This document shows, piece by piece, positions 22,809 through 62,375 of a DNA stretch of 64,000 bases. The stretch comes from a virus. The notes beneath the pieces are model-generated. The model was not told where the DNA came from and searched no databases. It saw nothing but the letters and a program-made list of their open reading frames with translations. How positions within the stretch are numbered: the stretch's first letter is position 1; each line of letters starts with the position of its first letter. The stretch lies in IMG/VR virus record IMGVR_UViG_3300031251_000001, positions 124,001 through 188,000 of that record; one strand, 5' to 3'. A program made the position numbers and the translations under genes.

Positions 22809-22874
22809 GCTGACCTCCTCTGGGCGAAAACACGATCAACCTAGACCGCATCACTAACCCTATTGTTCCTAGAT

Positions 22875-22903
22875 AGTATCGTCCGCCTGGTAGCACGAAT
22901 CAA
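22875..22903 (-). promoter_or_regulatory. candidate sigma70-type promoter for the Cys-repeat protein
   Basis: Minus strand: TTGATT, 17 bases, GATACT (4 of 6 each). A hairpin (CTGGTAGC ... GCTACCAG) overlaps the -35. It lies downstream of the RNA element at 23024-23090 and about 65 bases before the ATG at 22808. Confidence 0.4.
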
Positions 22904-23023
22904 GGCTACCAGACTTCTCCTGTCACCCGCACCTTGTCTTTGCTTTCTCCGCACGGGACAAGACAGCCATCCCGCTTTGGCGCGAGCCCGCTCGTACGAC
23001 AGACATACTTGAGCCCGCTCGTT

Positions 23024-23090
23024 CGTTGTGCTGCCGAGTGCCCACCAGGAGCACCCTAAGCTGCTGTAGGCGTTGCGGTCGCCCCGAAGC
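23024..23090 (-). ncRNA. repeated 67-nt structured RNA element, copy D
   Basis: Copy D of a family of four. Stem 1 GGGCG/CGCCU with a 7-nt loop, stem 2 GCAGC/GCAGC (one A-A mismatch), stem 3 GUGCUC/GGGCAC around a CUGGU loop, then GCACAACG. Stem 1 has a C-G pair replaced by G-C relative to copies A-C on both sides, a compensatory change. This copy is 88 bases after the upstream stop. It lies in a 370-base gap (22809-23178) that also holds hairpins at 23103-23133 and at 22886-22911 and no gene. Confidence 0.7.
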
Positions 23091-23178
23091 AATTGCGAGG
23101 TCGGGTGTTGAAAGGACCCTTCCGTGCACACCCTTAGAAAGCATGACGAGAATAGGTACTAACCGACCCCGCTCTCAC

Positions 23179-24303
23179 TTATCTACTGACCCGTCCTGAT
23201 TTCAGGATGTTCGGGTCAAGGCTGGTGGAAGCACTCGACAGCTCCGGCACCCTCGCGAAAGGATTCCAGCTGATGATGCCGTCATCACCGCGAAGCATGC
23301 CGTACCAGGGCCTGGGGTTCTGAATGTCGTAAGCGTGCCGCTGGGTGTCCCGGTGGCAATCCACACAAGAAGCCTTCGAGGCGGAGAAGAAGGCCCCATT
23401 GTACCTGGGTGGCACGATCGAGTCCCGTTCGGTCGTTGTCGCCATACCGCACTCTATGCCGTCCTGGACCAGCCAGGGCTCTCCCAGGGCAGGACGGAAG
23501 GGCATGGTCTTGAGTGTCTGCTTGGAGACCTCCTTCTCGATCTTAGGCATCTCCACGACTAACGCAGTGCGTGGCTTAAAGAGTCGAGGGTGAAGTGACG
23601 GGAAGATCATCTTGAGCGGGGAGGACGAGGGCTTACGATACTCGCCCAGCACATAGGTGAGCTCCGTCTCGTTGCGAACGGGTCGATAGACGTTGACGGC
23701 CCAGTGCTCAGCACCTGTTTCGTTGTCGGATTTGGTGCGAGTACGGATCTCGAAAGGGAGCTGGTCGCCGTCCGTGAACTTCTGGTAGAGGATCTCCACC
23801 AGGGTCGTTCCCTGGGGGAAGTCCCAGCTGACGGCGTCAGCGTACCGCTTCGATTCAGGCCGTCGCTCGGGACCGACGCTAATCTTGATGTTTCCAGTCT
23901 GAGGTAAAAGAAGGGCCTTCACGCTGGGGTAACCAGGTGGCAGTCCCGCTGTCCGAACCCACGGTTCTTCGTTGTTCGGTGTCCCGGCTGATTCGACTTG
24001 TTTCTCCATCGAGATATTACGGCCGGTGTAAACGAGGACCACGTGATCGGTGTTGTAGCGACTGGCGTAGACAGGATTGGATTGCGTAATGGTGCCTTCC
24101 TGGAACACCGTCGGCAGCGTGGTTTCGTCGTAGAACATCAAGTCGGGTGAGTTGAGGATCTTCTGCAGCTTCTCGTCATCGGTCTTGGGTAAGGTGCTGC
24201 GAACCTTGGCTTCTTGTTCCTTGGACATGTACCGCCACGGTGGCTCAGCCACGGCGGCGGGGACCAGGAACAGACACAGAGCTAAAGTGATGAGACGCAT
24301 CAT
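23179..24303 (-). CDS. exported protein with a c-type heme-binding motif
   Basis: 374 aa. Signal peptide (MMRLITLALCLFLVPAAVA), a long unrecognised beta-rich region, then CVDCHRDTQRHA at residues 313-324. CxxCH is the covalent heme c attachment site, and the preceding context (GAFFSASKASC) fits cytochrome c-like domains of bacterial exported proteins. A Met ligand could be M335 (WYGML). AGGAG precedes the ATG; palindrome site 3 lies 25 bases upstream. Phage-encoded heme c proteins are unusual. If maturation occurs it would be by the host Ccm system in the periplasm. Confidence 0.75.
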   Translation of the reverse strand: MMRLITLALCLFLVPAAVAEPPWRYMSKEQEAKVRSTLPKTDDEKLQKILNSPDLMFYDETTLPTVFQEGTITQSNPVYASRYNTDHVVLVYTGRNISMEKQVESAGTPNNEEPWVRTAGLPPGYPSVKALLLPQTGNIKISVGPERRPESKRYADAVSWDFPQGTTLVEILYQKFTDGDQLPFEIRTRTKSDNETGAEHWAVNVYRPVRNETELTYVLGEYRKPSSSPLKMIFPSLHPRLFKPRTALVVEMPKIEKEVSKQTLKTMPFRPALGEPWLVQDGIECGMATTTERDSIVPPRYNGAFFSASKASCVDCHRDTQRHAYDIQNPRPWYGMLRGDDGIISWNPFARVPELSSASTSLDPNILKSGRVSR

Positions 24304-24328
24304 GCGCTCCTAATAGTGAGGGGTAGGG

Positions 24329-24344
24329 CAAAATACGTATTTTG
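24329..24344. promoter_or_regulatory. 16-bp palindrome CAAAATACGTATTTTG, site 3
   Basis: Exact copy, 4 bases after the stop at 24349 and 25 bases before the ATG at 24303. The match extends one more base on each side (G...C). Confidence 0.88.
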
Positions 24345-24348
24345 CCGT

Positions 24349-24696
24349 CTAACAATGGAAGTCAGCCGCCTTGGCGTCCTTCAGGATGGACTTGCGAACG
24401 ATGTCATAGCGGGCCAGCAGCCAGCGTGCCTGGATGCGACGGCCTTCCTTGACGGTATCGTTGCAGTCGTCCCATTCGGTGAACTTGGTGGGCATCTTGC
24501 CTACTGATGTGGCCACGGTGTTGCCTTTCTCGACAGCTTCACGACCTGCCTCATGCAGATCGCGAGCCAGGGCCTCGACCGGGTCGTGTTTATCGACCGC
24601 AGTCTTGCACTTGTTGCCGCCGCAGCAGGGCTTGGGGTCAAGGATGTCCTTGACCGGGGTGGTGGCGGGAACACAGACTCGAACATCTTGCGACAT
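24349..24696 (-). CDS. hypothetical protein, 115 aa
   Basis: PKPCCGGNKCKTAVD near residue 22 and a single Cys at the end. Mostly helical (ALARDLHEAGREAVEKGN). ATG preceded by AAGGAAGGAT. Unrecognised. Confidence 0.68.
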   Translation of the reverse strand: MSQDVRVCVPATTPVKDILDPKPCCGGNKCKTAVDKHDPVEALARDLHEAGREAVEKGNTVATSVGKMPTKFTEWDDCNDTVKEGRRIQARWLLARYDIVRKSILKDAKAADFHC

Positions 24697-24723
24697 GGGA
24701 TCCTTCCTTTGCGCAAAGTAGAG

Positions 24724-25284
24724 TTACGACAAAACAGGTATCAAGCGGGAGAGTGTTCGCGCGAACGCTTCAATGCCTCCCTCCTTATCCAGTGTATCCA
24801 GAGGATACCACTGATTTGGTCCACCCTCGTCATCCTTTATGCTTTTACGGGTGCGATAACGAATGCCCAGGGTGAGGGCCTGCTCAGCATTGAAGTTGAC
24901 CTCAAACCAGGCAGTCCGGAACGTACCGTCGCCGCTGACAGCCGGGCCACCGGGATTGAAATCGATGCGGAACGTACCGGGGGCCAGACGCATGCTGGTA
25001 CAGACCAGAGAGAGCGTTGCCAGGCAAGCCTGCTTCCAGTTCTCCTTGGCCTGGGGCGACTGGTTCCAGCGTTCAGCGTACTTCTTCAGGCTGCCGGCGG
25101 AAGAGGAAATGCGGTGTTTGGCACTGACGACCTTCGGCGGCTTAGCTCCACCAAAGTAAGCCAGCAACTCCTTGAGGTCTTTGATCAGTTCAGCGTGGAT
25201 ATCGGGAGCCTCAGCAGTGAGGGCGTCCAGGCGGTACTGAAGCGAAGCGGTGATGACCTCGCGATTGTGTTTAGTCAGATACAT
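24724..25284 (-). CDS. hypothetical protein, 186 aa
   Basis: Helical N-terminal half (LIKDLKELLAYFGG) and a beta-rich C-terminal half (AWFEVNFNAEQALTLGIRYR). No motifs recognised. Precedes the zinc protein at 24349 in the same transcript. Confidence 0.7.
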   Translation of the reverse strand: MYLTKHNREVITASLQYRLDALTAEAPDIHAELIKDLKELLAYFGGAKPPKVVSAKHRISSSAGSLKKYAERWNQSPQAKENWKQACLATLSLVCTSMRLAPGTFRIDFNPGGPAVSGDGTFRTAWFEVNFNAEQALTLGIRYRTRKSIKDDEGGPNQWYPLDTLDKEGGIEAFARTLSRLIPVLS

Positions 25285-25290
25285 GACACC

Positions 25291-25452
25291 TCACGGTGAG
25301 ACAGGCGGCTGGGCGGGCGCCGTCTGAGTAGAAACGGGAAGGCGGCTGTGGATGGTGGATTGAACCCCCAACTTAAACAGCCACATTCCCATGACGCCAA
25401 TGATAAAAATCAAGGCAACAATCAGTTGACGATTCGGGGTATCCGCCGGCAT
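25291..25452 (-). CDS. small membrane protein, 53 aa
   Basis: ATG at 25452 with GGAGG seven bases upstream. One membrane segment (LIVALIFIIGVMGMWLFKLG) and a Pro-rich tail ending QPPVSP. Ends just before the next gene. Confidence 0.6.
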   Translation of the reverse strand: MPADTPNRQLIVALIFIIGVMGMWLFKLGVQSTIHSRLPVSTQTAPAQPPVSP

Positions 25453-25513
25453 TGAGAAGCCTCCGTTAGGATGTTACCGTTGTACCAATGCTTCCCACGC
25501 CGATCAATACAGA

Positions 25514-25912
25514 TCATTCTTCAGGGTCTTGCTCAGCAGCGAGTTCCTGCAGACAAGGTTCGATGACCAGTTTGACATCGACAGGCAGCTCACGATAGGT
25601 GAGCGACTTCTCGGCCAGGTGAACAGCGGCATGACGGGCCAGGCGATCACGGAAGAAGTCATCCAGCCAATCAGAGAAGTCGTGATCGAAGTGCGTGGTG
25701 TTGAGGTAGCCCTGAGCCAGTTCCAGCCACCAGCACAAGTGGCCATTGAAATAGTCAATATCGTGGCAGTGCTCGGCCAGCACCGTGTCCAACTTGTCGG
25801 CTCGGTTGAGGTGGTCCTTCACGGCGTTACAGAAGGTCACCGCTACGAGCAGCTGATCATTAACCGGGAATCTCTCGATGTACTCCCGCTTGTTCTGCTC
25901 TTTTCCAGGCAT
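25514..25912 (-). CDS. hypothetical acidic protein, 132 aa
   Basis: Helical, with His/Asp-rich patches (EHCHDIDYFNGH, THFDHDFSDWLDDFF). No metal-binding family recognised. Its start overlaps the end of the preceding small gene by 53 bases. Confidence 0.68.
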   Translation of the reverse strand: MPGKEQNKREYIERFPVNDQLLVAVTFCNAVKDHLNRADKLDTVLAEHCHDIDYFNGHLCWWLELAQGYLNTTHFDHDFSDWLDDFFRDRLARHAAVHLAEKSLTYRELPVDVKLVIEPCLQELAAEQDPEE

Positions 25913-26057
25913 CGGGTAAAAACCCTCCTTTAGTAAGCCACCCGTCCAAGGAGAGCAAGAGCAGCACCAATCGATTGGTGTCAGCCAGATCGAGTGGTGC
26001 TTCTTCGTTCCGCTTGGTGAGGCGACGGATCTCGGCGAGTGTTGCGTTGGGGTCCAT
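25860..26057 (-). CDS. hypothetical small protein, 65 aa
   Basis: ATG at 26057, two bases after the dCTP deaminase stop. Helical (ATLAEIRRLTKRNEEAPLDL). The longer ORF lies inside the deaminase gene and was rejected. Confidence 0.6.
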   Translation of the reverse strand: MDPNATLAEIRRLTKRNEEAPLDLADTNRLVLLLLSLDGWLTKGGFLPDAWKRAEQAGVHREIPG

Positions 26058-26059
26058 GG

Positions 26060-26644
26060 CTATCTCACGAAAGGGAGAACGATGCCAGCTTGGTTTTGAT
26101 ACTTGCCGCGTCGATCGGCGTAGCTGGTCGTGCAAGTCATACCGTGAGCGTGATCCGATTGCGTAAGTAATCTTGCACAGTCGGCTCGCAGGAAGATGAT
26201 TTGAGCGATCCCTTCGTGGGCGTAGATCTTCGCTGGCAGCGGCGTGGTGTTGCTGATCTCGATGGTGATCTTGCCTTCCCACTCCGGCTCGAGCGGGGTG
26301 ACATTGACGATCAGGCCGCAGCGAGCATAGGTACTCTTGCCGACACAGATCGCCAGGATGTCGCGAGGAATCTTGAACACCTCGAACGTCTCCCCCAGCA
26401 CGAAGCTGTTGGGCGGGATGACGCAGGTGTCACCCTCCATGCTCACGAACGACTTGGGGCTGAAGTTCTTCGGATCTACGATCTCGCCGTGGACGTTGGT
26501 GAAGACCTTGAACTTGTTACCCAACCTGGCGTCGTAGCCATAGCTGGTTACACCGTACGAGATGACACCTTTTGACATCTGCTCTTTGATGAACGGTGTA
26601 ATGCTGATCTCTTTCTCAATTTGCCAATCTGCTAAGACGCCGAT
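26060..26644 (-). CDS. dcd: dCTP deaminase, probable ATC start codon
   Basis: Deaminates dCTP to dUTP, feeding dTTP synthesis. Motifs: [29 protein letters not shown] (Ser/Arg/Ala of the active site), [14 protein letters not shown] (catalytic Glu) and [10 protein letters not shown]. Reading only from ATG at 26578 would drop the conserved N-terminal region. The frame extends to an ATC at 26644, giving [17 protein letters not shown], which fits the N-terminus of this family, with GGAGG six bases upstream. Total 194 aa, as in E. coli Dcd (193). A bifunctional deaminase/dUTPase cannot be excluded. Confidence 0.9.
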
Positions 26645-26680
26645 GGGGCACCTCCTTGGTGTTAAATTGTGGTACTCAAA

Positions 26681-26800
26681 CTACGGACCGTGAAAATCGT
26701 TCTGGGTCATGCTATGAAACCAGGAAGCCAGCCAGATGCTGAACAGGTAAAAAGCAATCCCAATCACGGTGAAAAGAATATCCAGTTTGCGTGAGATCAT
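26681..26800 (-). CDS. small membrane protein, 39 aa
   Basis: ATG at 26800 with GAGGG upstream. The sequence MISRKLDILFTVIGIAFYLF is a single membrane segment with an Arg/Lys at its front, followed by an aromatic stretch. Short but well placed between two genes. Confidence 0.5.
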   Translation of the reverse strand: MISRKLDILFTVIGIAFYLFSIWLASWFHSMTQNDFHGP

Positions 26801-26811
26801 AAAGCCCTCTG

Positions 26812-27132
26812 TTAGACATTGATTCCGCAGCCCACGTCCTTCCGGCAGACAGCACACTTCTTCACGTGCTTGCGGACACACTTCTTACAGAACGATCCGC
26901 AGTAGGTGGACTGCACGTCCTTGGTGCTGCTGCACTCTGAACAGGTCGGCTCCTCTTTCACGATATAGCACAGTGCTCCACACGCGGGGCACTCCCCCGC
27001 CGGTACCTCGCCGCCGACATCAACCCGTTGTGACAAGTCCTGGATGTCTTTGAGCTTGGCACCGGTATGGATCTTGCCGCAGTTGTCGCACTGGTACTTC
27101 TTGCCTGGTTCGACATCTTTTGGTGTTGTCAT
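26812..27132 (-). CDS. multi-zinc-ribbon protein, 106 aa
   Basis: Cys pairs: CDNCGK, CPACGALC, CSECSS, CGSFCKKC, CAVCRKDVGC. These give about two to three zinc ribbons, of which the last (KKCVRKHVKKCAVC) resembles RING-like or zinc-knuckle spacing. Function unknown; no nucleic acid partner can be read. Confidence 0.72.
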   Translation of the reverse strand: MTTPKDVEPGKKYQCDNCGKIHTGAKLKDIQDLSQRVDVGGEVPAGECPACGALCYIVKEEPTCSECSSTKDVQSTYCGSFCKKCVRKHVKKCAVCRKDVGCGINV

Positions 27133-27140
27133 GATGCTCC

Positions 27141-27626
27141 CTAGATGTAGTGGTTACCACGCAGGTGGTCACAGAGTTTCTCGACCACAGCGTCATACCA
27201 CTCCTCGCGGGTGTCGTAGTCGGCTTCGTCGGTGTTGAGACCGCTGAGGTCATCGCCATAGCGGTAGTAGAGGTGCTTGGCCTCCAGGATCTCCTGACGG
27301 GCGTCGACTGATCGCACGTGCTGGTAGACCACTGAATCTGCATCCGTGGTTCCCTCGTACTCCTGGAAGAGCCTGTCCTGCTGCTCAGGGTCAAGGTCAT
27401 GGCCCTGTTCAGTGAGGAAGAGCGTGGTGTAGAGGTAGTTGAGTTCGTACGAGGGAGTGACCTCAGCGCAGTTCACGTGGCGGTTGTAGTCATAGACATA
27501 CACCGCCACGACCTTCTCGATGAAGGGCTTATCCACGCTGGGGAAACTGTAGTATTCGGTTTGATCCAGCCCGATCACGCGGAAGTCGGGACGGACTTCG
27601 ACCGTTGGTCGCGTCGCGTCGTTCAT
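27141..27626 (-). CDS. hypothetical acidic protein, 161 aa
   Basis: Rich in Tyr, Asp and Glu (YYRYGDDLSGLNTDEADYD). ATG at 27626 has GGAGAG upstream although this start lies 98 bases inside the preceding gene. Unrecognised. Confidence 0.65.
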   Translation of the reverse strand: MNDATRPTVEVRPDFRVIGLDQTEYYSFPSVDKPFIEKVVAVYVYDYNRHVNCAEVTPSYELNYLYTTLFLTEQGHDLDPEQQDRLFQEYEGTTDADSVVYQHVRSVDARQEILEAKHLYYRYGDDLSGLNTDEADYDTREEWYDAVVEKLCDHLRGNHYI

Positions 27627-28017
27627 AGCCTCTCTCCGTGATGATGTGAGTTTTCGAGATGTGAGCGTAGTAAGAAGGCCAGTCGACGAAGATGCCGACG
27701 CTGGCCAGCTTGTCTGCCGGCATCATGAGCATGTCGCCGGTGTTGGTGTGATAGCCAGGGAAGATGTGCTCTCGGTGCAGCTCGCCGACTTGTTCCCATT
27801 CGGCCCGCTCACCGCGGATGCGGGTGATGCGGATCACCTGGAAGATGTGCGATTTGGCCGTGCTGGGTGTCGGGTCGTGGTTCATGCTGACGTTGTCAAC
27901 AAAGAGGATCTGGCCGACGACCAGGTCAGGCTTCGTTGGTGTAGGAGGCAGCGTCAATACGCTGCCCGTAGGCCTCCTCGAACTTTTCTCGTTGGTTGAT
28001 ATCGAAAAGTTTTTCAT
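27529..28017 (-). CDS. hypothetical protein, up to 162 aa, start uncertain
   Basis: The region LVVGQILFVDNVS looks like real coding sequence but lacks a start; ATG at 28017 overlaps the upstream gene by 92 bases, while ATG at 27885 would lose it. Beta-rich middle (SHIFQVIRITRIRGERAEWE). The Arg-rich end overlaps the next gene. Confidence 0.55.
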   Translation of the reverse strand: MKNFSISTNEKSSRRPTGSVLTLPPTPTKPDLVVGQILFVDNVSMNHDPTPSTAKSHIFQVIRITRIRGERAEWEQVGELHREHIFPGYHTNTGDMLMMPADKLASVGIFVDWPSYYAHISKTHIITERGYERRDATNGRSPSRLPRDRAGSNRILQFPQRG

Positions 28018-28345
28018 CGAAGTCCCAGTCCTCGCAAGGGGCGGAGAAGGTGTCAACGCTCAGGTTGTGTATGTCCGCTTTCCGTAGCAGCTCTCTAAAA
28101 TCGTGACCGACCTGCATCCCGCATTCGGCTAAGTTGCCGAGGTCGCCGAGGTTGAATTGCTCATTGGATTCCATGTAGCAATCGTAGCCCTCTTCCGTGA
28201 GAAACCACTCGTTGAAGATCTCGATCAGCGTAACCTTGAGAACGTCACCTGCGGTGATCTTATCGGAATCCCAAGTGACGGTAGCGTACGCCATGTCACC
28301 AGCTTCCGAGTTCTTGCTGGTGACGTTGATGGTGTGTCGTTTCAT
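27926..28345 (-). CDS. hypothetical acidic protein, 139 aa
   Basis: Glu/Asp-rich with a few Cys (YDCYMESNEQFNLGD). Start overlaps the upstream stop as ATGA. No recognised family. Confidence 0.68.
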   Translation of the reverse strand: MKRHTINVTSKNSEAGDMAYATVTWDSDKITAGDVLKVTLIEIFNEWFLTEEGYDCYMESNEQFNLGDLGNLAECGMQVGHDFRELLRKADIHNLSVDTFSAPCEDWDFDEKLFDINQREKFEEAYGQRIDAASYTNEA

Positions 28346-28791
28346 GGTTTAGCCTTTTGCTGGAGATAGCCACATTTACAGTGGCCATTGAACAGATCGA
28401 TGCTAGGGCAAGTACACGTCGTCTTGGGTAGCGACTTGATTGTGATGCCCGGCAACGGTATTGGCTGCAGTGGGGTAGGTGTCAGATTGATAGACACGTT
28501 GAGTTGCGGTGCGGCGGGCGGGTTGGCCGGTGGTGCTTTTGTTGAGTTGGGGTTCTTCTTCACCAGGGTGCAATTCTTGACTGGTGCACAGCGAGAAATC
28601 ACAACCGTTTTAGCTCCGCCCCCGAATGTGGATTGGCTGGTCGAAGCGTCGTACCAGATGACATCATCGCAGCTGATACTTCCTTGGTTGAGAAATCCCT
28701 TAAAATCCTTAGTCATCCCGGTGACGATGATCGAGTGACCGACCGCAGGAGTAGCTACCTCATCACCAATCTCGACATCTTCTAAAAGCAT
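28342..28791 (-). CDS. hypothetical protein, 149 aa, with Pro linker and Cys tail
   Basis: ATG at 28791 preceded by AAGGAG right after a terminator hairpin. An N-terminal beta-domain (LLEDVEIGDEVATPAVG), a Pro/Asn-rich linker and a C-terminal Cys cluster (TCTCPSIDLFNGHCKC) that could bind metal. Unrecognised. Confidence 0.65.
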   Translation of the reverse strand: MLLEDVEIGDEVATPAVGHSIIVTGMTKDFKGFLNQGSISCDDVIWYDASTSQSTFGGGAKTVVISRCAPVKNCTLVKKNPNSTKAPPANPPAAPQLNVSINLTPTPLQPIPLPGITIKSLPKTTCTCPSIDLFNGHCKCGYLQQKAKP

Positions 28792-28803
28792 TTCAGTCTC
28801 CTT

Positions 28804-28837
28804 AAACGAAAGCAGGGAGTGGTATATCCACTCCCTG
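28804..28837 (-). terminator. intrinsic terminator with TTTCGTTT tail
   Basis: Minus strand: CAGGGAGTGG ATATA CCACTCCCTG, 10-bp stem, then CTTTCGTTT and AAGGAG of the next gene. One of four hairpins with a TTTCGTTT tail placed directly before a ribosome binding site. Confidence 0.8.
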
Positions 28838-28858
28838 GGCAAGACACAAGAGTCGATG

Positions 28859-29170
28859 CTAGGCCATCAAGCTGGGCAAAATCTTCAGAGTGCGAATGAG
28901 GCCACGTCGCATGACTGCTCCACCGCCGTCCCGGATCTCCAGTTGGATCTTGTAGTCTCCCGGAGTCGGGAAGGGGTTGTAGATGGTGAGGAAGTCAGCG
29001 GAACTGACCGAACCGGACACCTGGAGGCCATTGATCACCACGATATCGACGTTAACGTCCGGTGACACAACGACCAGCTTGGCTGAGTAACCAGGCGTCA
29101 CCCAGTCCAGCTTGATCCTGACGAAGCGGATTCGACGACCACGTTCACCAGCGTAAATCGGTTGTGCCAT
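28859..29170 (-). CDS. small virion-like protein, 103 aa
   Basis: Beta-sandwich-like sequence (PDVNVDIVVINGLQVSGSVS, PTPGDYKIQLEIRDGGG). It ends the run of fibre/virion-like genes 28.9-32.6 kb. Role inferred from position and composition. Confidence 0.6.
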   Translation of the reverse strand: MAQPIYAGERGRRIRFVRIKLDWVTPGYSAKLVVVSPDVNVDIVVINGLQVSGSVSSADFLTIYNPFPTPGDYKIQLEIRDGGGAVMRRGLIRTLKILPSLMA

Positions 29171-29180
29171 CGCTCACTCC

Positions 29181-30374: not shown

Positions 30375-30384
30375 GCCGGCTCCT

Positions 30385-54088: not shown

Positions 54089-54101
54089 CGACTGGAAGGA
54101 G

Positions 54102-54153
54102 GCCCGACGTGGTAGAGGCTTGGCTAGTACTCCTCGACTCACCCACGTCAGGC
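54102..54153 (-). ncRNA. long structured hairpin, terminator- or RNA-like
   Basis: GCCTGACGTGG pairs with CCACGTCGGGC (11 bp, one U-G on the minus strand) around a 30-base loop that contains a further GAGG/CCTC stem. It begins eight bases after the stop of the gene ending at 54161 and sits just upstream of the promoter at 54080. There is no U-tract, so an ordinary terminator is unlikely. Confidence 0.5.
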
Positions 54154-54160
54154 CATGGAT

Positions 54161-54639: not shown

Positions 54640-54652
54640 GGTGACCTCTAAG

Positions 54653-54724
54653 AGCCGGGGGCAAGATTTGAACTTACGACCTCGTGGTTATGAGCCACGC
54701 GAGCTACCACTGCTCCACCCCGGT
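54653..54724 (-). tRNA. tRNA with CAT anticodon (Met or Ile2)
   Basis: 72 bases fold as a cloverleaf: D-arm GAGC/GCTC, anticodon stem CGTGG/CCACG with loop CTCATAA (anticodon CAT), five-base variable loop, T-arm GTAAG/CTTGC with TTCAAAT loop, and acceptor stem of six pairs plus an A1-C72 mismatch. CCA is not encoded. A CAT anticodon means elongator or initiator Met, or Ile2 if the C is modified. The mismatch at 1-72 recalls initiator tRNA, but the anticodon stem does not have the three consecutive G-C pairs, so an elongator or Ile2 is likelier. It is the only tRNA found; 54725-54816 (92 bases) upstream of it holds nothing else recognisable. Confidence 0.9.
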
Positions 54725-54816
54725 ATGGCGGGAAGACGCCAGACAGACGGGTACCAGACCGACCTGCCTAACGCCCTCCCATGTCTGCATGTTGTACATG
54801 ACCCACCGTGCCGTGT

Positions 54817-55347: not shown

Positions 55348-55364
55348 GTCCTGATTGTAACATG

Positions 55365-55703: not shown

Positions 55704-55718
55704 GGTGTACCTCAAGTG

Positions 55719-55743
55719 AAAAACCCAGGCGGTAGGCCTGGGT
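55719..55743 (-). terminator. intrinsic terminator
   Basis: Minus strand: ACCCAGGC CTACC GCCTGGGT, 8-bp stem, then TTTTTCAC. Six bases after the stop at 55750 and 16 bases before the next start. Confidence 0.82.
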
Positions 55744-55749
55744 ATTGGT

Positions 55750-56433
55750 TTAGAGATCGTCCTGCTGAGGGTCAGCATCGTTGACGTGGCGGATGAAGCC
55801 ACGATGCAGCCAACCGTGAAAGCCGGGACGAGACGGAGCAATGAAGATAGAGGGTTTGACGGTAACTCGTGGCACGGTGCCCTTGCGTGACCAGGCCGGG
55901 TTGCTGCCTGAGCTGATCGATGGCCCGTCGATAAACCAGTCTGAAATGTCGGGGCCTTCGCCACTGGGGTCAGACGGGCAGCGAACATAGAGACAGATGC
56001 CATCAGCACCCGTGAACTTATCCTTCTTACCGTCCGAGCCGCGCCACCAGGAAGCATCCCACATGGCTCCTGCTGGTGCTCTGACCGGCCCACCAGGCAG
56101 CTCGCTCAGGTGCAAGTGATACTCACCGCCCTTATCGTCCTGGTAGATCACCTCCCAGAACAGCTCACGATCCTTCTTCTCGAACGCCAAACCACAGCTG
56201 CACTGAGCCGGCCAGCGTGTGTCTTCGGCAAAGGGCGTCATGTCGCCATGCCCGCCCAGGATGCCGCGTGCCTTATCCTCGGCACTGATGACACCATCCT
56301 CGACTCGATTCAAAGCAGAGTGATAACTGTAGTCACCGCCCATCGAAGGACACGGCCCGCTACGGCTGCACCGCAGCCACTGATAGCTGCGGTCACTCGG
56401 TTTGATGAAGAAGCAAAGGATAGGTTTCATCAT
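55750..56433 (-). CDS. hypothetical protein, 227 aa
   Basis: Starts MMKPILCFFIKPSDRSYQWL, with several Cys (WLRCSRSGPCPSMGG, QCSCGLAFEKKD) and Trp-rich segments (GAMWDASWWRGSDGKKDKF). A similar kind of protein is seen in phages and alpha-proteobacteria but has no assigned function. Coupled to the upstream gene by ATGA. Confidence 0.68.
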   Translation of the reverse strand: MMKPILCFFIKPSDRSYQWLRCSRSGPCPSMGGDYSYHSALNRVEDGVISAEDKARGILGGHGDMTPFAEDTRWPAQCSCGLAFEKKDRELFWEVIYQDDKGGEYHLHLSELPGGPVRAPAGAMWDASWWRGSDGKKDKFTGADGICLYVRCPSDPSGEGPDISDWFIDGPSISSGSNPAWSRKGTVPRVTVKPSIFIAPSRPGFHGWLHRGFIRHVNDADPQQDDL

Positions 56434-56666
56434 GGGTGATTCACCTTCAGGTTGTTGAACCAGGTCACGATGAGGACGAGCAGCCCCCACACGCCGATGA
56501 CAAACAAGGTGATCCAGAGTGGACTCATGACCCAGAGCCAAGACCAGTCGATGGCCTTGAACAGCTTGAGAGCGATGAACACCAGCTGTACGATGCCGAT
56601 GATGATGGCAATGACCATGATCACGAGCGATTCAAAGATTGCTTCACCGAAGGAGTTGAAGTCCAT
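56430..56666 (-). CDS. small membrane protein, 78 aa
   Basis: Two hydrophobic helices (SLVIMVIAIIIGIVQLVFIA and LWITLFVIGVWGLLVLIV). ATG at 56666 is in GGAGGATGGAATG directly behind palindrome site 7; a longer ORF would translate the palindrome. Unrecognised. Confidence 0.68.
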   Translation of the reverse strand: MDFNSFGEAIFESLVIMVIAIIIGIVQLVFIALKLFKAIDWSWLWVMSPLWITLFVIGVWGLLVLIVTWFNNLKVNHP

Positions 56667-56675
56667 TCCATCCTC

Positions 56676-56691
56676 CAAAATACGTATTTTG
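56676..56691. promoter_or_regulatory. 16-bp palindrome CAAAATACGTATTTTG, site 7
   Basis: Exact copy, 4 bases after the stop at 56696 and 9 bases before the ATG at 56666; its last G starts the ribosome binding site GGAGG. Confidence 0.88.
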
Positions 56692-56695
56692 AAAC

Positions 56696-56890
56696 CTACT
56701 TGGCCATCACCAGCAGCATGAACGGCCAGGAGACCATCCACAGAGTGAACCAGTAGGGCAACGTGAACCCAGGAGCACCTTTAGCGACCAGGATGATCAA
56801 GGCCAGGACGAATCCGATAGTCAGATAGCCCAGCACGATGCCGGCCAGCAACCTGCCGGCGCCTTTACAGATCTTCCAAAGTGTTCGCAT
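56696..56890 (-). CDS. small membrane protein, 64 aa
   Basis: Two hydrophobic segments (LLAGIVLGYLTIGFVLALI and YWFTLWMVSWPFMLLVMA). Unrecognised. Confidence 0.65.
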   Translation of the reverse strand: MRTLWKICKGAGRLLAGIVLGYLTIGFVLALIILVAKGAPGFTLPYWFTLWMVSWPFMLLVMAK

Positions 56891-56908
56891 GCGGTACTCC
56901 GGAGTTCC

Positions 56909-57115
56909 TTACTCCAGTGTACCCTGTCGGCGTCTCCGCACACTGCGGAGCGAACCCCGTGGCGGGAAGTACCCGATGTCCTTGACTTGACCGTTATGGA
57001 ACACCACGCGGATGTTCTCAGGGCTGATGTGAGTGATGATCCCTTCGCGGCCGAGGAGTGACTTACCGCCGGCCAGGGTCTCACCAGTGACTTTAACTTT
57101 GGTTTGAGGTCGCAT
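56909..57115 (-). CDS. hypothetical basic protein, 68 aa
   Basis: KOW/SH3-like beta sequence (KVKVTGETLAGGKSLLGREG, NGQVKDIGYFPPRGSLR) with an Arg-rich tail. Possibly nucleic acid or ribosome associated; no family match. Confidence 0.6.
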   Translation of the reverse strand: MRPQTKVKVTGETLAGGKSLLGREGIITHISPENIRVVFHNGQVKDIGYFPPRGSLRSVRRRRQGTLE

Positions 57116-57365
57116 CGTGCTCTCGCTGTTTGTCCAATACTGTTGAGATATCGAGCAGGTACAGGCCGAACCAGATGGGCAGGCACACCGCCACTGCTAT
57201 CGACAGGACAACAATAACACCTGCGAGAACGGACATCAACCATTTACCGGCTGCTGACCAGGCAACGAGCCCAGCAGGGCTGCACAGCCAGAAGATCAAG
57301 ATGGCGACCGGGGCGATGATGAAGCCGTAAGCGGTTGCCCGCGTAAGGTGAACGAGGAAGCGCAT
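57093..57365 (-). CDS. small membrane protein, 90 aa
   Basis: Two hydrophobic segments (GFIIAPVAILIFWLCSPAGL and LMSVLAGVIVVLSIAVAVCL). ATG at 57365 overlaps the stop of the zinc protein upstream (TGATG). Unrecognised. Confidence 0.65.
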   Translation of the reverse strand: MRFLVHLTRATAYGFIIAPVAILIFWLCSPAGLVAWSAAGKWLMSVLAGVIVVLSIAVAVCLPIWFGLYLLDISTVLDKQREHDATSNQS

Positions 57366-57568
57366 CACGAGGCCATCCTTTCCCGGAGAGCAGCCTCCTT
57401 GGAGCGAGGCCGCGGCCAACCATGACGGTAGAAATAATTGCAACACTTCCGGCAGTAGTAGCCCTGATGCTTACCTTTGTCATTGACGACAACCAGGACC
57501 CTGCTGTAGGGAGTCTCGCAGTCCTTATTTTGACACTTTTGCTTTGGTACTCGGCGGTGACGAGGCAT
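57365..57568 (-). CDS. small zinc-finger-like protein, 67 aa
   Basis: KQKCQNKDCETPYSRV and YYCRKCCNYFYRHGW give a Cx4C and CxxCC pair; the remainder is very basic. ATG at 57568 with GGAG in the end of the PAP2 gene (44-base overlap). Possible DNA- or RNA-binding zinc ribbon. Confidence 0.62.
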   Translation of the reverse strand: MPRHRRVPKQKCQNKDCETPYSRVLVVVNDKGKHQGYYCRKCCNYFYRHGWPRPRSKEAALRERMAS

Positions 57569-58232
57569 TGACATCTCCAATGACGAGCCAGTTGATGGAC
57601 AGGGCGGAGCAGAAGAAGCCCAGGAGCCAACCACCGATGCAGTCGGTCGGGTAGTGGACGCCGAGCATGACGCGACTGGTGCAGACCAAGGCGATACCAA
57701 AGAAGGTAAGGCTGACGATGGTCCTGAACACGGCGTAGTTGATGTCGTACTCACTCCGACCTCGGGCCTTGAGCACCCTGTCGGCACGGATGTAGGCGAC
57801 ACGCAGAACGGTCCACCAGAAGGCAACAGCAGCGGAAGCATGGCTACTGGGGAAGGAGTAACCGCCCTCCTCGGTCAGGTGTGAGACGATGCTAGGTCGA
57901 TCGCGTTGAACGATGAGCTTCCAGGCCAAGTCGAAGATGAACGCCAGTGCGACAGCGATGAAGGCAGGTCTGGGGTCAGGCCGATCGTTGCTATTGGTGG
58001 GATCGACTGCGCAATAGAGCATGTAGATCAGCATGGCAAAACAGACCGTGGCGGCCGAGGCCCAGGAGGTGATATCCCGAGCCACGCTGGCCAGCGTGCT
58101 GTTGGTAATAGGGTGCAGCCAGGTGAGGATGGCGTCATCGAATCCCTGCGTCCAGCCACTCTTGACAGCGATGGCCAAGAAACCGAAGAGGAAGGCAAGT
58201 ACCCAGAGCTGCGTCGTGTGTTTGTTGTTCAT
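57525..58232 (-). CDS. PAP2-family membrane phosphatase
   Basis: 235 aa with about five to six membrane segments. The three catalytic motifs are complete: KLIVQRDRP (KX6RP, residues 105-113), SFPSSH (PSGH-type, about 126-131) and SRVMLGVHYPTD (SRX5HX3D, near 190). Dephosphorylates lipid or isoprenoid phosphates such as phosphatidate or undecaprenyl pyrophosphate. One of the RNA elements lies in its 5' region. In a phage it may alter envelope lipid or cell-wall carrier pools. Confidence 0.92.
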   Translation of the reverse strand: MNNKHTTQLWVLAFLFGFLAIAVKSGWTQGFDDAILTWLHPITNSTLASVARDITSWASAATVCFAMLIYMLYCAVDPTNSNDRPDPRPAFIAVALAFIFDLAWKLIVQRDRPSIVSHLTEEGGYSFPSSHASAAVAFWWTVLRVAYIRADRVLKARGRSEYDINYAVFRTIVSLTFFGIALVCTSRVMLGVHYPTDCIGGWLLGFFCSALSINWLVIGDVNASSPPSTKAKVSK

Positions 58233-58313
58233 GTTTGTCCTTGGGATGATCCCGTTTGACTTGGCCAGGAGTAACCCCGGCCGTCGACCACATACCAGTA
58301 CCCGGTCGTGGTG

Positions 58314-58380
58314 CGTTGTGCCGCCGAGTACCCACCAGGAGCACCCTAAGCAGCGGTAGGCCTACCGGTGGCCCCGTGAA
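58314..58380 (-). ncRNA. repeated 67-nt structured RNA element, copy A
   Basis: Starts 4 bases after the stop at 58385. Stem 1 GGGCC/GGCCU (7-nt loop), stem 2 GCUGC/GCGGC with a UUAGG bulge on the 5' side, stem 3 GUGCUC/GGGUAC with the invariant CUGGU loop, then GCACAACG. Several pairs are G-U only in minus-strand orientation. The 152-base gap (58233-58384) has no ORF; downstream of the core GACC/GGTC can pair and the PAP2 gene follows. Confidence 0.75.
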
Positions 58381-58384
58381 CTGA

Positions 58385-58639
58385 CTACTTGCTCTGGATG
58401 TTACAGCGGGCATCCCAGAACAGCAAGATGACGATGGTGACGACCAGGCCAATGATGCCGGCCGTGCCCCAGTAATAGTCGAAGCTGGAGTCAAACCAGA
58501 TCGCTGTCATGCAGAGCATGCAGGCTAGCATGGAGAGCGTGAACGCTGCGTATTTGGCTGGTGGATCTGAAGGAATTGGCTTGTTAAAAGCATCGCCCAG
58601 CAACCTGCGTAGCTGGGCGTCCTTGTCGAAGTGAGGCAT
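58385..58639 (-). CDS. small membrane protein, 84 aa
   Basis: ATG at 58639 with GGAG (an ATG at 58654 that overlaps the upstream stop is the alternative). Two hydrophobic segments (AAFTLSMLACMLCMTAIWF and GTAGIIGLVVTIVILLFW). Unrecognised. Confidence 0.62.
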   Translation of the reverse strand: MPHFDKDAQLRRLLGDAFNKPIPSDPPAKYAAFTLSMLACMLCMTAIWFDSSFDYYWGTAGIIGLVVTIVILLFWDARCNIQSK

Positions 58640-58650
58640 CGATAGCTCCG

Positions 58651-59103
58651 TCATGCGGTATTATTTTCGGGTGCGAGCCCCAGCGGAACGAAAGAGTGAT
58701 CGTCAGGCGGCGGTGCAGCAACAGGGGCTGGTGCCGGCGGCTTGACGGGGGCTGCGGGTTGATTACTGAGTTTGAGTGGTGGGGTAGTCGATTGGCCTGA
58801 TCGTCGGCTACCCAGGATGCCGATGCCGACAGCTCCACCCATCGCTGCGGCCGGGCCAAAGAGCTTGAGCCCCCGCGAGAGAAGACCAGCCGTCTTGCCC
58901 AGTCCCATGCCGGTGTTGAGCAAGGCCCTGCGAAGCTGCCAGCCGGTGTAGAGTTGCTCCACGACGTCGGTGGCTTCCTTCTTCTCTTCGCCTACCTTGT
59001 CGGGCAGGGTGATGTCCTTGGGTGTGTGTTCCTGCCATCGCTTAGCCATCTCGGGCTTCTGAGAATACATCCATCTGCGCTGGGCCTTCGACTTAAACGG
59101 CAT
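58651..59103 (-). CDS. phage protein with FKSKAQRRWMY motif, 150 aa
   Basis: The N-terminus MPFKSKAQRRWMYSQKPEMA followed by KRWQEHTP is a motif found at the front of many small phage proteins of unknown role. A hydrophobic Gly/Ala helix (LFGPAAAMGGAVGIGILGS) and a Pro/Ala-rich tail follow. Its 5' region holds RNA copy B. Confidence 0.72.
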   Translation of the reverse strand: MPFKSKAQRRWMYSQKPEMAKRWQEHTPKDITLPDKVGEEKKEATDVVEQLYTGWQLRRALLNTGMGLGKTAGLLSRGLKLFGPAAAMGGAVGIGILGSRRSGQSTTPPLKLSNQPAAPVKPPAPAPVAAPPPDDHSFVPLGLAPENNTA

Positions 59104-59225
59104 GACATATCTCCATTTGACCCGGTACGCTTATCCTAACCCCGGCTCGTGTTGCTTAGCCATATCTAGGTCCCCCGGTGCGGCAATTCCTTCCTTCCGG
59201 ATCCAATGCAAGCCCGGCGGCGATG

Positions 59226-59292
59226 CGTTGTGCCGGCGAGCGTCCACCAGGGACGCCCTAACCAGCTGTGGGCCTACCGGTGGCCCCGTGAC
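59226..59292 (-). ncRNA. repeated 67-nt structured RNA element, copy B
   Basis: Starts 6 bases after the stop at 59299. Stem 1 GGGCC/GGCCC, stem 2 GCUGG/CCGGC, stem 3 GCGUCC/GGACGC, all well paired, loops ACCGGUA and CUGGU. The last pair of stem 2 is G-C here and C-G in copies A and D, and stem 3 differs in sequence but stays paired. It lies in a 195-base gap (59104-59298) with no ORF. Confidence 0.75.
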
Positions 59293-59298
59293 TTCAGT

Positions 59299-59784
59299 CT
59301 AACAAACGGGCGGCTGCCCATGCGGTGCTGAATGAAGAATCATGTCCTCCAGTCGGAGGTTGACGTCGTCGAGGTAGACCGGGCTAAAGCGGATGCGAGC
59401 TTCCTCTTTGGTGCCGTAGCTCGACTGGACAGGCGGGTGCTGAGAGAGTTGCTGCTCCTGAACTCGCACCCAAGGCAAACCTCGCAGCTCATCGGGGAGC
59501 TTCTCGTAGTAAAGCCGGGAAGACCACTTCACCGGCGTCAACCACACTAGCTTGCCGTTCTCCTTCGACTCAAAGGTGGCGCCCTCGTAGACCATAAAGG
59601 TGCCACTTCGGAAGGCCATGATGGCGGTCACCGGTCCCACGCCACATCTGATCTCGGTGGCCAACCGCATGGTGGCCACCGTACGACGGTGCGGGTTAAG
59701 CGAGATCGCCTTGGTCCTGGTCGGAAGGAACAGGCCCGTGATCATTGCTACCAGGCTCCCCAGCAGGCTTCGGCGGTTCGACAT
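59299..59784 (-). CDS. exported protein with Tat-like signal, 161 aa
   Basis: N-terminus MSNRRSLLGSLVAMITGLFL has twin Arg followed by a hydrophobic core, similar to a Tat signal (RRxFL), then beta-rich sequence (GTFMVYEGATFESKENGKLV). The remainder is unrecognised. The first 89 bases overlap the upstream gene. Confidence 0.65.
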   Translation of the reverse strand: MSNRRSLLGSLVAMITGLFLPTRTKAISLNPHRRTVATMRLATEIRCGVGPVTAIMAFRSGTFMVYEGATFESKENGKLVWLTPVKWSSRLYYEKLPDELRGLPWVRVQEQQLSQHPPVQSSYGTKEEARIRFSPVYLDDVNLRLEDMILHSAPHGQPPVC

Positions 59785-60499
59785 GAGTTGCTCTCTTTTC
59801 CAAGTCAGCCAGCACGGGAGTGGCGACAGGGTTATGGGTCTTGTTCAATCTTAACTTAGACAAGGCAGCGCTGAGGTTGGAGGTGCCCTTCTCCTGGAGG
59901 CGACGAGCCATCACCTCTTCGCTGCCGGCATTGGGGGTGACGGTGGTTTTCTCCTGGCGAATGACTTTCACCCGTGCTCGACTCTGATCATTATCGGCTT
60001 CTTTCAGGATCTCGCCAAACGCTTCATGCGTTGCTTGCTCCTCAAAGACACTCTGTTCCTTGGCGTCCTTACGACGCTGCACACTGACAGGTCCATTCAG
60101 GGTGTAGTCGAGAAGCTCGTGACTGTGGCATCCCTGGGTGTACTCCCCTTTAGGGAGTGGGTGATCTTTACCTGTGATCTTCAGGGTGCGGAACTGGTTC
60201 TCCATCCGCGTCATCGCTGCCCTGACGTGCTCCTTAAACTCGGCAAAGGTGCCGACAAAGGCGTTGATGTGCACATCCGTCTCATTGGTCACGATGGCCA
60301 CCGGTTCCTCGCCGGCAGGCACTGCAGGAAGATCAGCGACCGGTGTGATAGACGGCACCTTCACGGTAGGCAGATAAAGCGGAATGCCGGGACCGTCACC
60401 CACCCCGCAGGTAATCCCGAAGTAGAAGATGTGCTTGATTGGACCCTTGGGTGGCTTCACCTCGCTGAATATCTCTGGATGCTCGAAGTGATTGCTCAT
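59696..60499 (-). CDS. hypothetical protein, 267 aa
   Basis: An N-terminal part with FYFGITCGVGDGPGIPLYLP, a middle helical part and a Lys/Glu/Pro-rich C-terminus (KPAGEPGSNDHGPVPSDQDQ) that looks disordered. Unrecognised; no signal peptide. Confidence 0.68.
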   Translation of the reverse strand: MSNHFEHPEIFSEVKPPKGPIKHIFYFGITCGVGDGPGIPLYLPTVKVPSITPVADLPAVPAGEEPVAIVTNETDVHINAFVGTFAEFKEHVRAAMTRMENQFRTLKITGKDHPLPKGEYTQGCHSHELLDYTLNGPVSVQRRKDAKEQSVFEEQATHEAFGEILKEADNDQSRARVKVIRQEKTTVTPNAGSEEVMARRLQEKGTSNLSAALSKLRLNKTHNPVATPVLADLEKRATHVEPPKPAGEPGSNDHGPVPSDQDQGDLA

Positions 60500-60513
60500 A
60501 CTTACTCCCCTGG

Positions 60514-60993
60514 TTACTGGTATCTCTCGGCCCGCTCCCGACTCATCACGTAAAGCGACTCGCTCTGCTCGGTGGCACTGACTACCACCGTAAAGCTGCA
60601 GTCCTTGACGAAGCCCGAGCTGTTGAGCAGCCCTGGCCCTTTTGTATCCACTGCGTCATGGTCTGTATAGTCGATTATCTCGACGCCGTTACAGACCATG
60701 TGCGGAGAGCAGGGGGCAGCTGAGCCGTGGTGATTCCAGGTGCTGGCGTTCTGGAAGCGGATCAGGGTGCGGTTATGATCCGACAGCACCAGCATTTCTT
60801 TAGCTACGATGCTGTACGACTGACGATTGGGCAGGTTGAGCCAGGCGCGTGGGTTCGACATCGTGAGAGCGATGTTGAGATAGTTATGCCTCTTGCCGTC
60901 CTTGCTCACGTTAGCCTTGAAGGCCCCGATGATGACCAAGAAGATCGCTACGAAGCACATGGCGAAGAACCAGAGGATGCTGACAGCGTCCAT
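60514..60993 (-). CDS. membrane-anchored protein, 159 aa
   Basis: ATG at 60993 with GGGG. N-terminal helix (AVSILWFFAMCFVAIFLVII) and a C-terminal soluble part with C and V/S-rich strands (DCSFTVVVSATEQSESLYVM). Unrecognised. Confidence 0.65.
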   Translation of the reverse strand: MDAVSILWFFAMCFVAIFLVIIGAFKANVSKDGKRHNYLNIALTMSNPRAWLNLPNRQSYSIVAKEMLVLSDHNRTLIRFQNASTWNHHGSAAPCSPHMVCNGVEIIDYTDHDAVDTKGPGLLNSSGFVKDCSFTVVVSATEQSESLYVMSRERAERYQ

Positions 60994-60995
60994 GC

Positions 60996-61760
60996 TTACC
61001 CCTTGAGATGGAAGACCTTGATCAACTCCTGTCGCAGTTCTGGGTTGGCCTCCAGCACCTGGAGAGTAGTCTCCTGATCGGCAACAAGCAACTCCAACAA
61101 GGTGGTAGCCCACTTGACGACATACTCCTGCTTTGACATCAGCAGGTTGTCGAACTCGGTCGCACAGATGCCACACTGGCTGCGGTGGTCGCAGGTGGCC
61201 TTTCCACCCCCGACGAACTTGAGACCGACGTCGGAGGGGGCCGGAGTTGACCAACTGACCGGTTGCTTAAACTGTTCAACCACCTGAACCGCCTCATTCT
61301 TGCGAGCACGACAAGGCGACTTCATCTCCGCCGGGACAATGAAATCACCACAGCGCTTGCACCTGACGCACTGACCCTGGCCTGGCGGGTGCGACACAGT
61401 ACACCGCTCCATGCCCGGTTCGTGCGGTAAATTGAAAGGATGTGGTTCGCTGACGCCGAGTTCAGATTTGATTTCTTTACACTCCCATGTTTTCTTGTTC
61501 GAGTTGTAGTTGTACCAGTGCTCATGCACCGATGCCGGCTCGTCGAAGGTGAAGAGGAGCGACACCTCTTTGGGATCCTCGATGTCGAGGTGGAAAGTAG
61601 CGGAATGAGCATGGATGCCGTGGGAGACGGCAGCGTCCACGTTAATAAATGATGACGTGGAGGAATGGTCCGTAACCCTAGACAGGGTACGCACGGTGAC
61701 TCGTACCTTCTTGGTGTCGGGCCAGATCGGAAAATGGAAGAAGTAACGGCTGAGTGGCAT
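60996..61760 (-). CDS. hypothetical Cys-rich protein, 254 aa
   Basis: ATG at 61760 with GGAG. Two Cys pairs (CVRCKRCGD and CDHRSQCGICATE) suggest a zinc site; a beta-rich N-terminal domain (VRVTVRTLSRVTDHSSTSSF) precedes, a helical C-terminus follows. Unrecognised. Confidence 0.66.
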   Translation of the reverse strand: MPLSRYFFHFPIWPDTKKVRVTVRTLSRVTDHSSTSSFINVDAAVSHGIHAHSATFHLDIEDPKEVSLLFTFDEPASVHEHWYNYNSNKKTWECKEIKSELGVSEPHPFNLPHEPGMERCTVSHPPGQGQCVRCKRCGDFIVPAEMKSPCRARKNEAVQVVEQFKQPVSWSTPAPSDVGLKFVGGGKATCDHRSQCGICATEFDNLLMSKQEYVVKWATTLLELLVADQETTLQVLEANPELRQELIKVFHLKG

Positions 61761-61779
61761 GGTGGCTCCTGTGGAGGTG

Positions 61780-62118
61780 TTACTTATGATCTTTGACCAG
61801 CTGTTCACACTGCTGGGCATAGGTCTTGCCAATGAACTGCTGCTGGCGTAGAAATCCGAGCTTGGCTCTCGATGTCATCTTCTCCCAGAGCCGGGCTATC
61901 ATGGGCCTGATCTTATCCAGGCCGACGCCAGATCGGAAGCGGAAACGACCCTCGGACAGGTCCCCCGTCTCCTCCATGACTCCACCAAGCTCTTCGGGCA
62001 GCTGATCACCACCGTCACAATCGATGTCAGAGTACATATTGACGATGCGTTCAGCGGTGAACTTGCTAGGTACGTTATTAACCCCTTGTGAGGGGTAAGG
62101 CGAGGCGTAGATAGGCAT
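61780..62118 (-). CDS. hypothetical protein, 112 aa
   Basis: ATG at 62118; palindrome site 8 is 14 bases upstream and GGAG lies before the ATG. Helical C-terminus (FLRQQQFIGKTYAQQCEQLV). Unrecognised. Confidence 0.65.
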   Translation of the reverse strand: MPIYASPYPSQGVNNVPSKFTAERIVNMYSDIDCDGGDQLPEELGGVMEETGDLSEGRFRFRSGVGLDKIRPMIARLWEKMTSRAKLGFLRQQQFIGKTYAQQCEQLVKDHK

Positions 62119-62132
62119 GCTTGCTCCTGGTT

Positions 62133-62148
62133 CAAAATACGTATTTTG
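62133..62148. promoter_or_regulatory. 16-bp palindrome CAAAATACGTATTTTG, site 8
   Basis: Exact copy, 14 bases before the ATG at 62118. Unlike the other sites it does not directly follow a stop codon; a 231-base gap containing RNA copy C precedes it. Confidence 0.88.
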
Positions 62149-62308
62149 GGTTCGTGTCTCCGCCCCTGCTTCGTGCTGGTGGACTCCACCTGCTGTGACA
62201 AGCCCGACTTGACTCCCTGCTACGAGGTAGCCAGATCGGCTCACCTGTTGCGAGCATTGGCATCTCCGCCCCTGCCCGTGCGGGAAGAGCATCAACACCC
62301 TGCTCGCT

Positions 62309-62375
62309 CGTTGTGCCAGCGACCCGCCACCAGGGCGAACCTAACCAGCTGTAGGCCTAGCAGAGGCCCCGTGAA
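62309..62375 (-). ncRNA. repeated 67-nt structured RNA element, copy C
   Basis: Starts 4 bases after the stop at 62380. Stem 1 GGGCC/GGCCU with loop UCUGCUA, stem 2 GCUGG/CUGGC (wobble pairs), stem 3 UUCGCC/GGCGGG around CUGGU. The stem 3 U-G pairs exist only in the minus orientation. Downstream (62149-62308), GCAGGGGCGGAGA occurs twice and GGTGGAGTCCACC can pair; no ORF there. Confidence 0.72.

What the first reader, a model, noticed from the sequence alone, without database searches (positions are those of the whole stretch)
22809..62375. Undescribed 67-nt structured RNA family, four copies with compensatory changes
Copies at 23024, 58314, 59226 and 62309 share CACGGGGC, UACAGCUG-type stem, UUAGG, the CUGGU loop and GCACAACG. 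Three stems fold in all copies: stem 1 varies GGGCC/GGCCU, GGGCC/GGCCC and GGGCG/CGCCU; stem 2 swaps its last pair between C-G and G-C; stem 3 is different in every copy yet pairs (GUGCUC/GGGUAC, GCGUCC/GGACGC, UUCGCC/GGCGGG, GUGCUC/GGGCAC). Several pairs are G-U only if read on the minus strand, which fixes the strand. All lie in the only long gene-free gaps, three of them 4-6 bases after a stop codon. I do not recognise it as a known riboswitch or ribozyme.
Basis: partly seen in the sequence, partly recalled or inferred. Interest (0 to 1): 0.92.

Follow-up and report, generated by a model that had tools for sequence, protein, structure and literature searches.

The report
Ten-copy folded RNA of a phage
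A very large, uncultivated bacterial virus carries ten diverged copies of one small folded RNA between its genes; base changes that keep the pairs together show that the fold is real, it matches no catalogued RNA family, and what it does is not yet known.

Summary
The four copies are real, all on the minus strand, 66 nt long and gap-free. The window is part of a 214,229-base virus record. A covariance model finds six more copies there, again all on the minus strand. One of these (61.6 bits, E 3e-14) was not used to build the model.

Over ten copies 98.2% of pair cells are standard pairs; 10 of 22 pairs show double compensatory changes. Two pairs are individually significant against a tree-aware null. 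The shape is a short hairpin, a 3-nt linker and a bulged 14-bp hairpin with an invariant CUGGU loop. A loop-loop contact is possible but unproven.

No Rfam 15 family matches. I found no copy in 28 related phage records, IMG/VR, cultured phages or GTDB representative genomes, at the sensitivity of those searches.

Ordinary readings tested and not supported: intrinsic terminator, coding or readthrough signal, integron-type attC site, TnpB-type guide RNA, known ribozyme, tRNA. Most likely it is a cis-acting signal at gene borders in polycistronic phage messages, read by a protein. The mechanism is inferred, not shown.

The parts
23023..23088 (-). RNA copy 1 (record 147023-147088)
   Evidence: R1 85.5 bits, E 1.1e-20 (in the training set). 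90 nt after the stop of gene 23179-24303; next gene start 214 nt downstream
58313..58378 (-). RNA copy 2 (record 182313-182378)
   Evidence: R1 86.5 bits. 6 nt after the stop of gene 58385-58654; 80 nt before a PAP2-family gene 57525-58232
59225..59290 (-). RNA copy 3 (record 183225-183290); its minimum-energy fold equals the consensus structure, 19 of 19 pairs
   Evidence: R1 90.1 bits; fold. 8 nt after the stop of ORF 59299-59784; 121 nt before gene 58651-59103
62308..62373 (-). RNA copy 4 (record 186308-186373)
   Evidence: R1 83.3 bits. 6 nt after the stop of a NUDIX gene 62380-62913; about 192 nt before a likely start at 62115
59270..59286 (-). Hairpin A of copy 3 (alignment columns 5-21): 5 bp and a 7-nt loop with conserved CYR
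   Evidence: 100% of cells paired in ten copies; C-G/G-C compensatory swap at columns 9-17
59232..59266 (-). Hairpin B of copy 3 (alignment columns 25-59): lower stem, 2-nt NA bulge, upper stem, invariant CUGGU loop
   Evidence: 97.1% of cells paired; 9 of 14 pairs with changes on both sides
59226..59231 (-). 3' tail ACAACG of copy 3 (columns 60-65), unpaired; first five bases invariant in all ten copies

Best explanation
A phage-specific cis-acting RNA element at cistron borders. It is transcribed within the long minus-strand polycistronic messages of this jumbo phage, folds into two hairpins, and is recognised as a folded RNA by a protein (phage factor, host RNA-binding protein or nuclease, or a transcription complex) through its invariant unpaired letters: the CUGGU loop, the linker, the bulge and the ACAAC tail. 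By binding there it most likely separates the expression of the gene before it from that of the gene after it, through processing or end-stabilisation of the message (about 0.3 of this reading's 0.5) or through protein-assisted action on transcription (about 0.2). Shown: RNA-level structural constraint, strand, copy number, placement, lack of coding. Inferred: transcription, protein recognition, effect on expression.
For: Ten diverged copies keep one fold, with 32 double-change cells against 9 in shuffles; two pairs individually significant against a tree-aware null. All ten lie on the strand that carries 264 of 279 called genes, and all lie between genes. In six the RNA starts 5-10 nt after a co-directional stop codon, and in one it overlaps the stop. 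All ten are followed by a co-directional start 26-214 nt downstream, although the median gene gap is 14.5 nt. Neighbouring genes share no function (PAP2, NUDIX, ThyX-like Thy1, HNH, unknowns), which speaks for a general signal rather than a gene-specific sensor. 27 of 66 positions are invariant, many of them unpaired. No U-run follows, so it is not an intrinsic terminator; ordinary terminators exist elsewhere in the record.
Against: No transcript data. Two copies fit a border signal between two co-directional genes poorly: record 5097-5162 starts about 4 nt after a strong intrinsic terminator, and 208841-208906 follows a divergent plus-strand kumamolisin-like gene. No RNase III gene is found in the record. 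No protein partner was identified.
Confidence: 0.5

Rival explanations
1. A nascent-RNA antiterminator that works like HK022 put RNA: the two hairpins stay bound to the transcribing polymerase and make it ignore pauses and terminators, without a dedicated protein.
For: put RNAs are about 70 nt and made of two stem-loops, the second with a bulged middle, and act without a dedicated protein (PMC9378689). The element here is 66 nt with two hairpins, the second bulged. Seven of ten copies lie in a 46-kb stretch (record 168-214 kb) where no intrinsic terminator was found.
Against: HK022 has two put sites, near early promoters; here there are ten between genes. put RNA binds the beta' zinc-binding domain, whose cysteines are missing from the phage's own fused polymerase, so it would have to act on the host enzyme. 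The lack of terminators in that stretch is not significant (11 in all; inference). No sequence comparison with put was made.
Confidence: 0.17
2. A new small self-cleaving ribozyme that cuts the polycistronic message.
For: Many invariant unpaired letters and a possible loop-loop contact; phages do carry ribozymes, for example theta ribozymes next to tRNAs (PMC10879173).
Against: No match to any ribozyme family of Rfam. Both ends lie outside the stems and no cleavage-site geometry is visible; not testable here.
Confidence: 0.11
3. A trans-acting family: ten small RNAs, or decoys, that titrate or occupy a host RNA-binding protein.
For: Many copies of a conserved core with unrelated flanks, next to unrelated genes; two copies lie where cotranscription with a preceding gene is doubtful.
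Against: Six copies start 5-10 nt after a stop codon, leaving no room for an ordinary promoter outside the coding sequence; no terminator follows the copies.
Confidence: 0.13
4. A ligand-sensing riboswitch in ten leaders.
For: Invariant unpaired letters with compensatory stems; a co-directional start follows each copy.
Against: Downstream genes share no pathway; spacing to the start varies from 26 to 214 nt; no expression platform is visible.
Confidence: 0.05
5. A folded single-strand DNA recombination site, such as an integron attC, following each gene.
For: Like attC sites it tends to sit just behind stop codons and varies in stem sequence while keeping pairs.
Against: No tyrosine recombinase in the record (all 14 control genomes positive); copies are many genes apart, not in cassette arrays; G-U pairs are widespread and often the commonest pair.
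Confidence: 0.02

Closest known systems
HK022 put RNA (PMC9378689)
   Same: About the same length; two adjacent hairpins, the second bulged; in phage non-coding RNA; more than one copy per genome.
   Different: put: two copies near early promoters, acting on the beta' zinc domain of host polymerase. Here: ten copies at gene borders, and the phage's own polymerase lacks those cysteines. No sequence relation tested.
Intercistronic RNase III processing sites of T7-like phages (own knowledge)
   Same: About ten irregular hairpins between genes of long phage messages, in transcription direction.
   Different: T7 sites are single irregular hairpins cut by host RNase III; here a two-hairpin element with many invariant loop letters. 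No RNase III gene in the record; cleavage untested.
Theta ribozymes of gut phages (PMC10879173)
   Same: Small structured phage RNAs placed between genes.
   Different: HDV-like, usually beside tRNAs; no Rfam match here and only one tRNA found in the window, 3.6 kb from the nearest copy.
Integron attC sites (own knowledge)
   Same: Imperfect hairpins just behind stop codons; structure kept while sequence varies.
   Different: No integrase, no cassette array, wobble pairs throughout.

Membership tests
Any Rfam 15 family | Score at or above the family's gathering threshold | tested here: not met
   Window and most of the record: only a tRNA-Met at 54653-54724; permissive scans around copies give only chance matches
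tRNA or tRNA-like | Detected by ARAGORN or the Rfam tRNA model | tested here: not met
   Only tRNA-Met at 54652-54724
HK022 put RNA | Two adjacent stem-loops in about 70 nt | tested here: met
   66 nt, two hairpins
HK022 put RNA | Acts on the beta' zinc-binding domain of RNA polymerase | tested here: inconclusive
   The phage polymerase cannot serve: its only four cysteines lie at 916-1029, none near the start of the beta' part. The host polymerase could not be tested
HK022 put RNA | Antitermination activity | not testable with these tools
   Needs transcription assay
Intrinsic terminator | GC-rich hairpin followed by a run of U | tested here: not met
   No U-run after any copy; none called as terminator
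Stop-codon readthrough or bacterial SECIS signal | Open reading frame continuing after the stop; UGA for SECIS | tested here: not met
   Frame closes after 9-12 codons in four of seven; stops are TGA, TAG and TAA
Integron attC site | Tyrosine recombinase in the same genome | tested here: not met
   PF00589 absent from the record; the record may be incomplete
TnpB/Cas12f guide RNA | Effector gene in the same genome | tested here: not met
   PF07282 absent; the 25 nt after the copies match elsewhere in the record only about as often as chance
RNase III processing site | Cleavage by RNase III | not testable with these tools
   No RNase III in the phage; host enzyme could act
Self-cleaving ribozyme | Cleavage activity | not testable with these tools
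   No known ribozyme family matches

The most novel reading that the evidence does not exclude
A previously undescribed class of phage RNA device, present ten times in one jumbo phage with its own fused beta-beta' RNA polymerase, that uses a two-hairpin fold (perhaps closed by a loop-loop contact) to control transcription or self-processing at gene borders without a dedicated protein: a new RNA antiterminator class or a new ribozyme class.
Probability: 0.22. Interest if true: 0.85.

Novelty: new variant of a known kind. Interest (0 to 1): 0.6.

Why it matters
A small RNA kept at ten places in one viral genome by compensatory change is probably important to that virus. The phage belongs to a lineage with an unusual single-chain multisubunit RNA polymerase whose transcription control is, as far as I found, unstudied. 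The element is short and can be tested directly in vitro, so it could show how such phages separate or control genes in long messages. It also gives a clear seed for a new Rfam family.

Tried and rejected
Sequence pattern scans of viral contigs, from strict to loose, followed by model R1: only chance matches, best 18.3 bits. Strict pattern in GTDB representative genomes: none. Looser pattern: 40 chance places, best R1 21.4 bits in loci chosen for the pattern. R1 in 28 phage records related by RNA polymerase (29-39% identity, best segment): none. R1 in 294 genomes of the phylum of a planctomycete MAG, chosen on a weak hunch about the host: none. Cultured phages by blastn: chance only; an 18-base match in Arthrobacter phages was checked with R1 and is negative. 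Readthrough or frameshift signal: no consistent open frame. Guide-RNA reading with variable 3' parts: no effector, no clear targets in the record. Third hairpin downstream: 4 of 10 copies have z below -2 (mean -1.37) against 12-16% of control gaps; suggestive, no common register. Kissing loop (loop A CYR with CUGGU): all ten compatible, but changes only on one side, so unproven.

Full report
What was checked. I read the four places and aligned them on the minus strand. They align without gaps over 66 positions. The exact core pattern occurs in the window only at these places, and up to two mismatches gives 8 matches where shuffles give 1.3.

The record. The window is positions 124001-188000 of a 214,229-base virus record from IMG/VR. 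The record encodes a DNA polymerase, an ATP-dependent ligase, SbcC-like and helicase proteins and a 1,674-residue fused beta-beta' RNA polymerase, whose nearest cultured relatives are Salmonella phage Arash and Vibrio phages D181, D148 and D69 at about 30% identity. It is therefore a tailed-phage-like jumbo phage; its host is not known.

More copies. A pattern search of the record gave further copies. A covariance model R1 from nine copies found ten places, all on the minus strand: record 5097, 122620, 147023, 182313, 183225, 186308, 202759, 207871, 208841 and 213826. The copy at 5097 was not used to build the model and scores 61.6 bits, E 3.5e-14. The next match scores 15.6 bits, so there is a clear gap between members and noise.

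The structure. Hairpin A has five pairs and a seven-base loop. A three-base linker (ACM) leads to hairpin B, which has a lower stem, a two-base NA bulge, an upper stem and the invariant loop CUGGU. An unpaired ACAAC tail, invariant in all ten, follows. RNAalifold finds this structure by itself. In ten copies 98.2% of cells are paired; slid versions reach at most 50%. Ten of 22 pairs show double changes, with 32 such cells against 9.2 in shuffles. Because shuffles ignore kinship, I also simulated 60 alignments along a FastTree tree with the observed number of changes per column. Two structural pairs (38-48 and 9-17) reach E below 0.05, and five of the six best of all column pairs are structural. 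Folding energies of single copies are not unusual, and copy 62308 alone prefers another fold; the case rests on covariation. Read as plus-strand RNA only 74.1% of cells pair, so the minus strand carries the RNA.

Placement. A simple codon-model gene call gives 279 genes, 264 on the minus strand, with a median gap of 14.5 nt. All ten copies lie between genes. Six start 5-10 nt after a co-directional stop codon and one overlaps the stop. The copy at 147023 lies 90 nt after a stop. The copy at 5097 starts about 4 nt after a strong intrinsic terminator. The copy at 208841 lies behind a divergent kumamolisin-like gene. A co-directional start follows each copy at 26-214 nt. The neighbours share no function. 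The copies are concentrated: seven lie between 182 and 214 kb and none between 5.2 and 122 kb.

What it is not. It does not match any Rfam family at gathering scores, and permissive scans around the copies tested give only chance matches. It is not an intrinsic terminator, as no U-run follows. It is not coding or a readthrough signal. No tyrosine recombinase, TnpB/Cas12f-type zinc domain or RNase III was found in the record; each of these searches was positive in control genomes. The record may be incomplete, so absence is not final.

Distribution. I found no other member in 28 records of phages with related RNA polymerase, by patterns in IMG/VR, by pattern in GTDB representatives, by R1 in 294 genomes of the phylum of one planctomycete MAG, or by blastn in cultured phages.

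Mechanism. The folded RNA is under selection at ten gene borders with unrelated neighbours, which favours a general cis-acting signal read by a protein over a gene-specific sensor. Two routes are open. One is processing or end-stabilisation of the message, like RNase III sites of T7-type phages. The other is action on transcription, for which the nearest parallel is HK022 put RNA, which is also about 70 nt with two stem-loops (PMC9378689). The phage's own polymerase lacks the zinc-domain cysteines that put uses, so a put-like role would need the host enzyme or another contact. A new ribozyme and a decoy RNA remain possible. None of these steps is shown.

Verdict. Function is inferred only.

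Noticed in passing
window 11264, 19457, 24331, 34475, 41221, 48167, 56678, 62135 (first base of AAATACGTATTT); 22 places in the whole record: A perfect 16-bp palindrome CAAAATACGTATTTTG occurs 22 times exactly in the 214-kb record, mean spacing 10.0 kb (sd 5.0), with only one place at 1-2 mismatches. It often sits between a stop codon and the next gene's ribosome site, sometimes inside genes. It looks like a stringent protein-binding DNA site (centromere- or operator-like). No ParB_N domain found, and absent from two related phages searched.
   Followed up: partly
record 102635-107659 (L014:2635-7659, minus): Single-chain fused beta-beta' RNA polymerase of 1,674 residues, 29-39% identical (best segment) to those of about 30 IMG/VR phage records; the beta' zinc-binding cysteines are missing.
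   Followed up: partly
record 208971-210554 plus strand (L017:9971-11554): Kumamolisin-like (sedolisin) protease gene, one of few plus-strand genes, with a pro-domain; unusual in a phage.
   Followed up: no
record 5166-5240, minus strand: A perfect hairpin GGGCGATGACATATTGTCATCGCCC followed by a strong intrinsic terminator, directly before the RNA copy at 5097.
   Followed up: no
55 nt after the RNA copies at record 182313, 186308, 202759 and 213826: Stable hairpins without U-runs follow these copies (z -2.1 to -4.2), more often than in control gaps, with no common sequence.
   Followed up: partly
window 54652-54724: A single tRNA-Met (CAT), the only known RNA found in the window.
   Followed up: no
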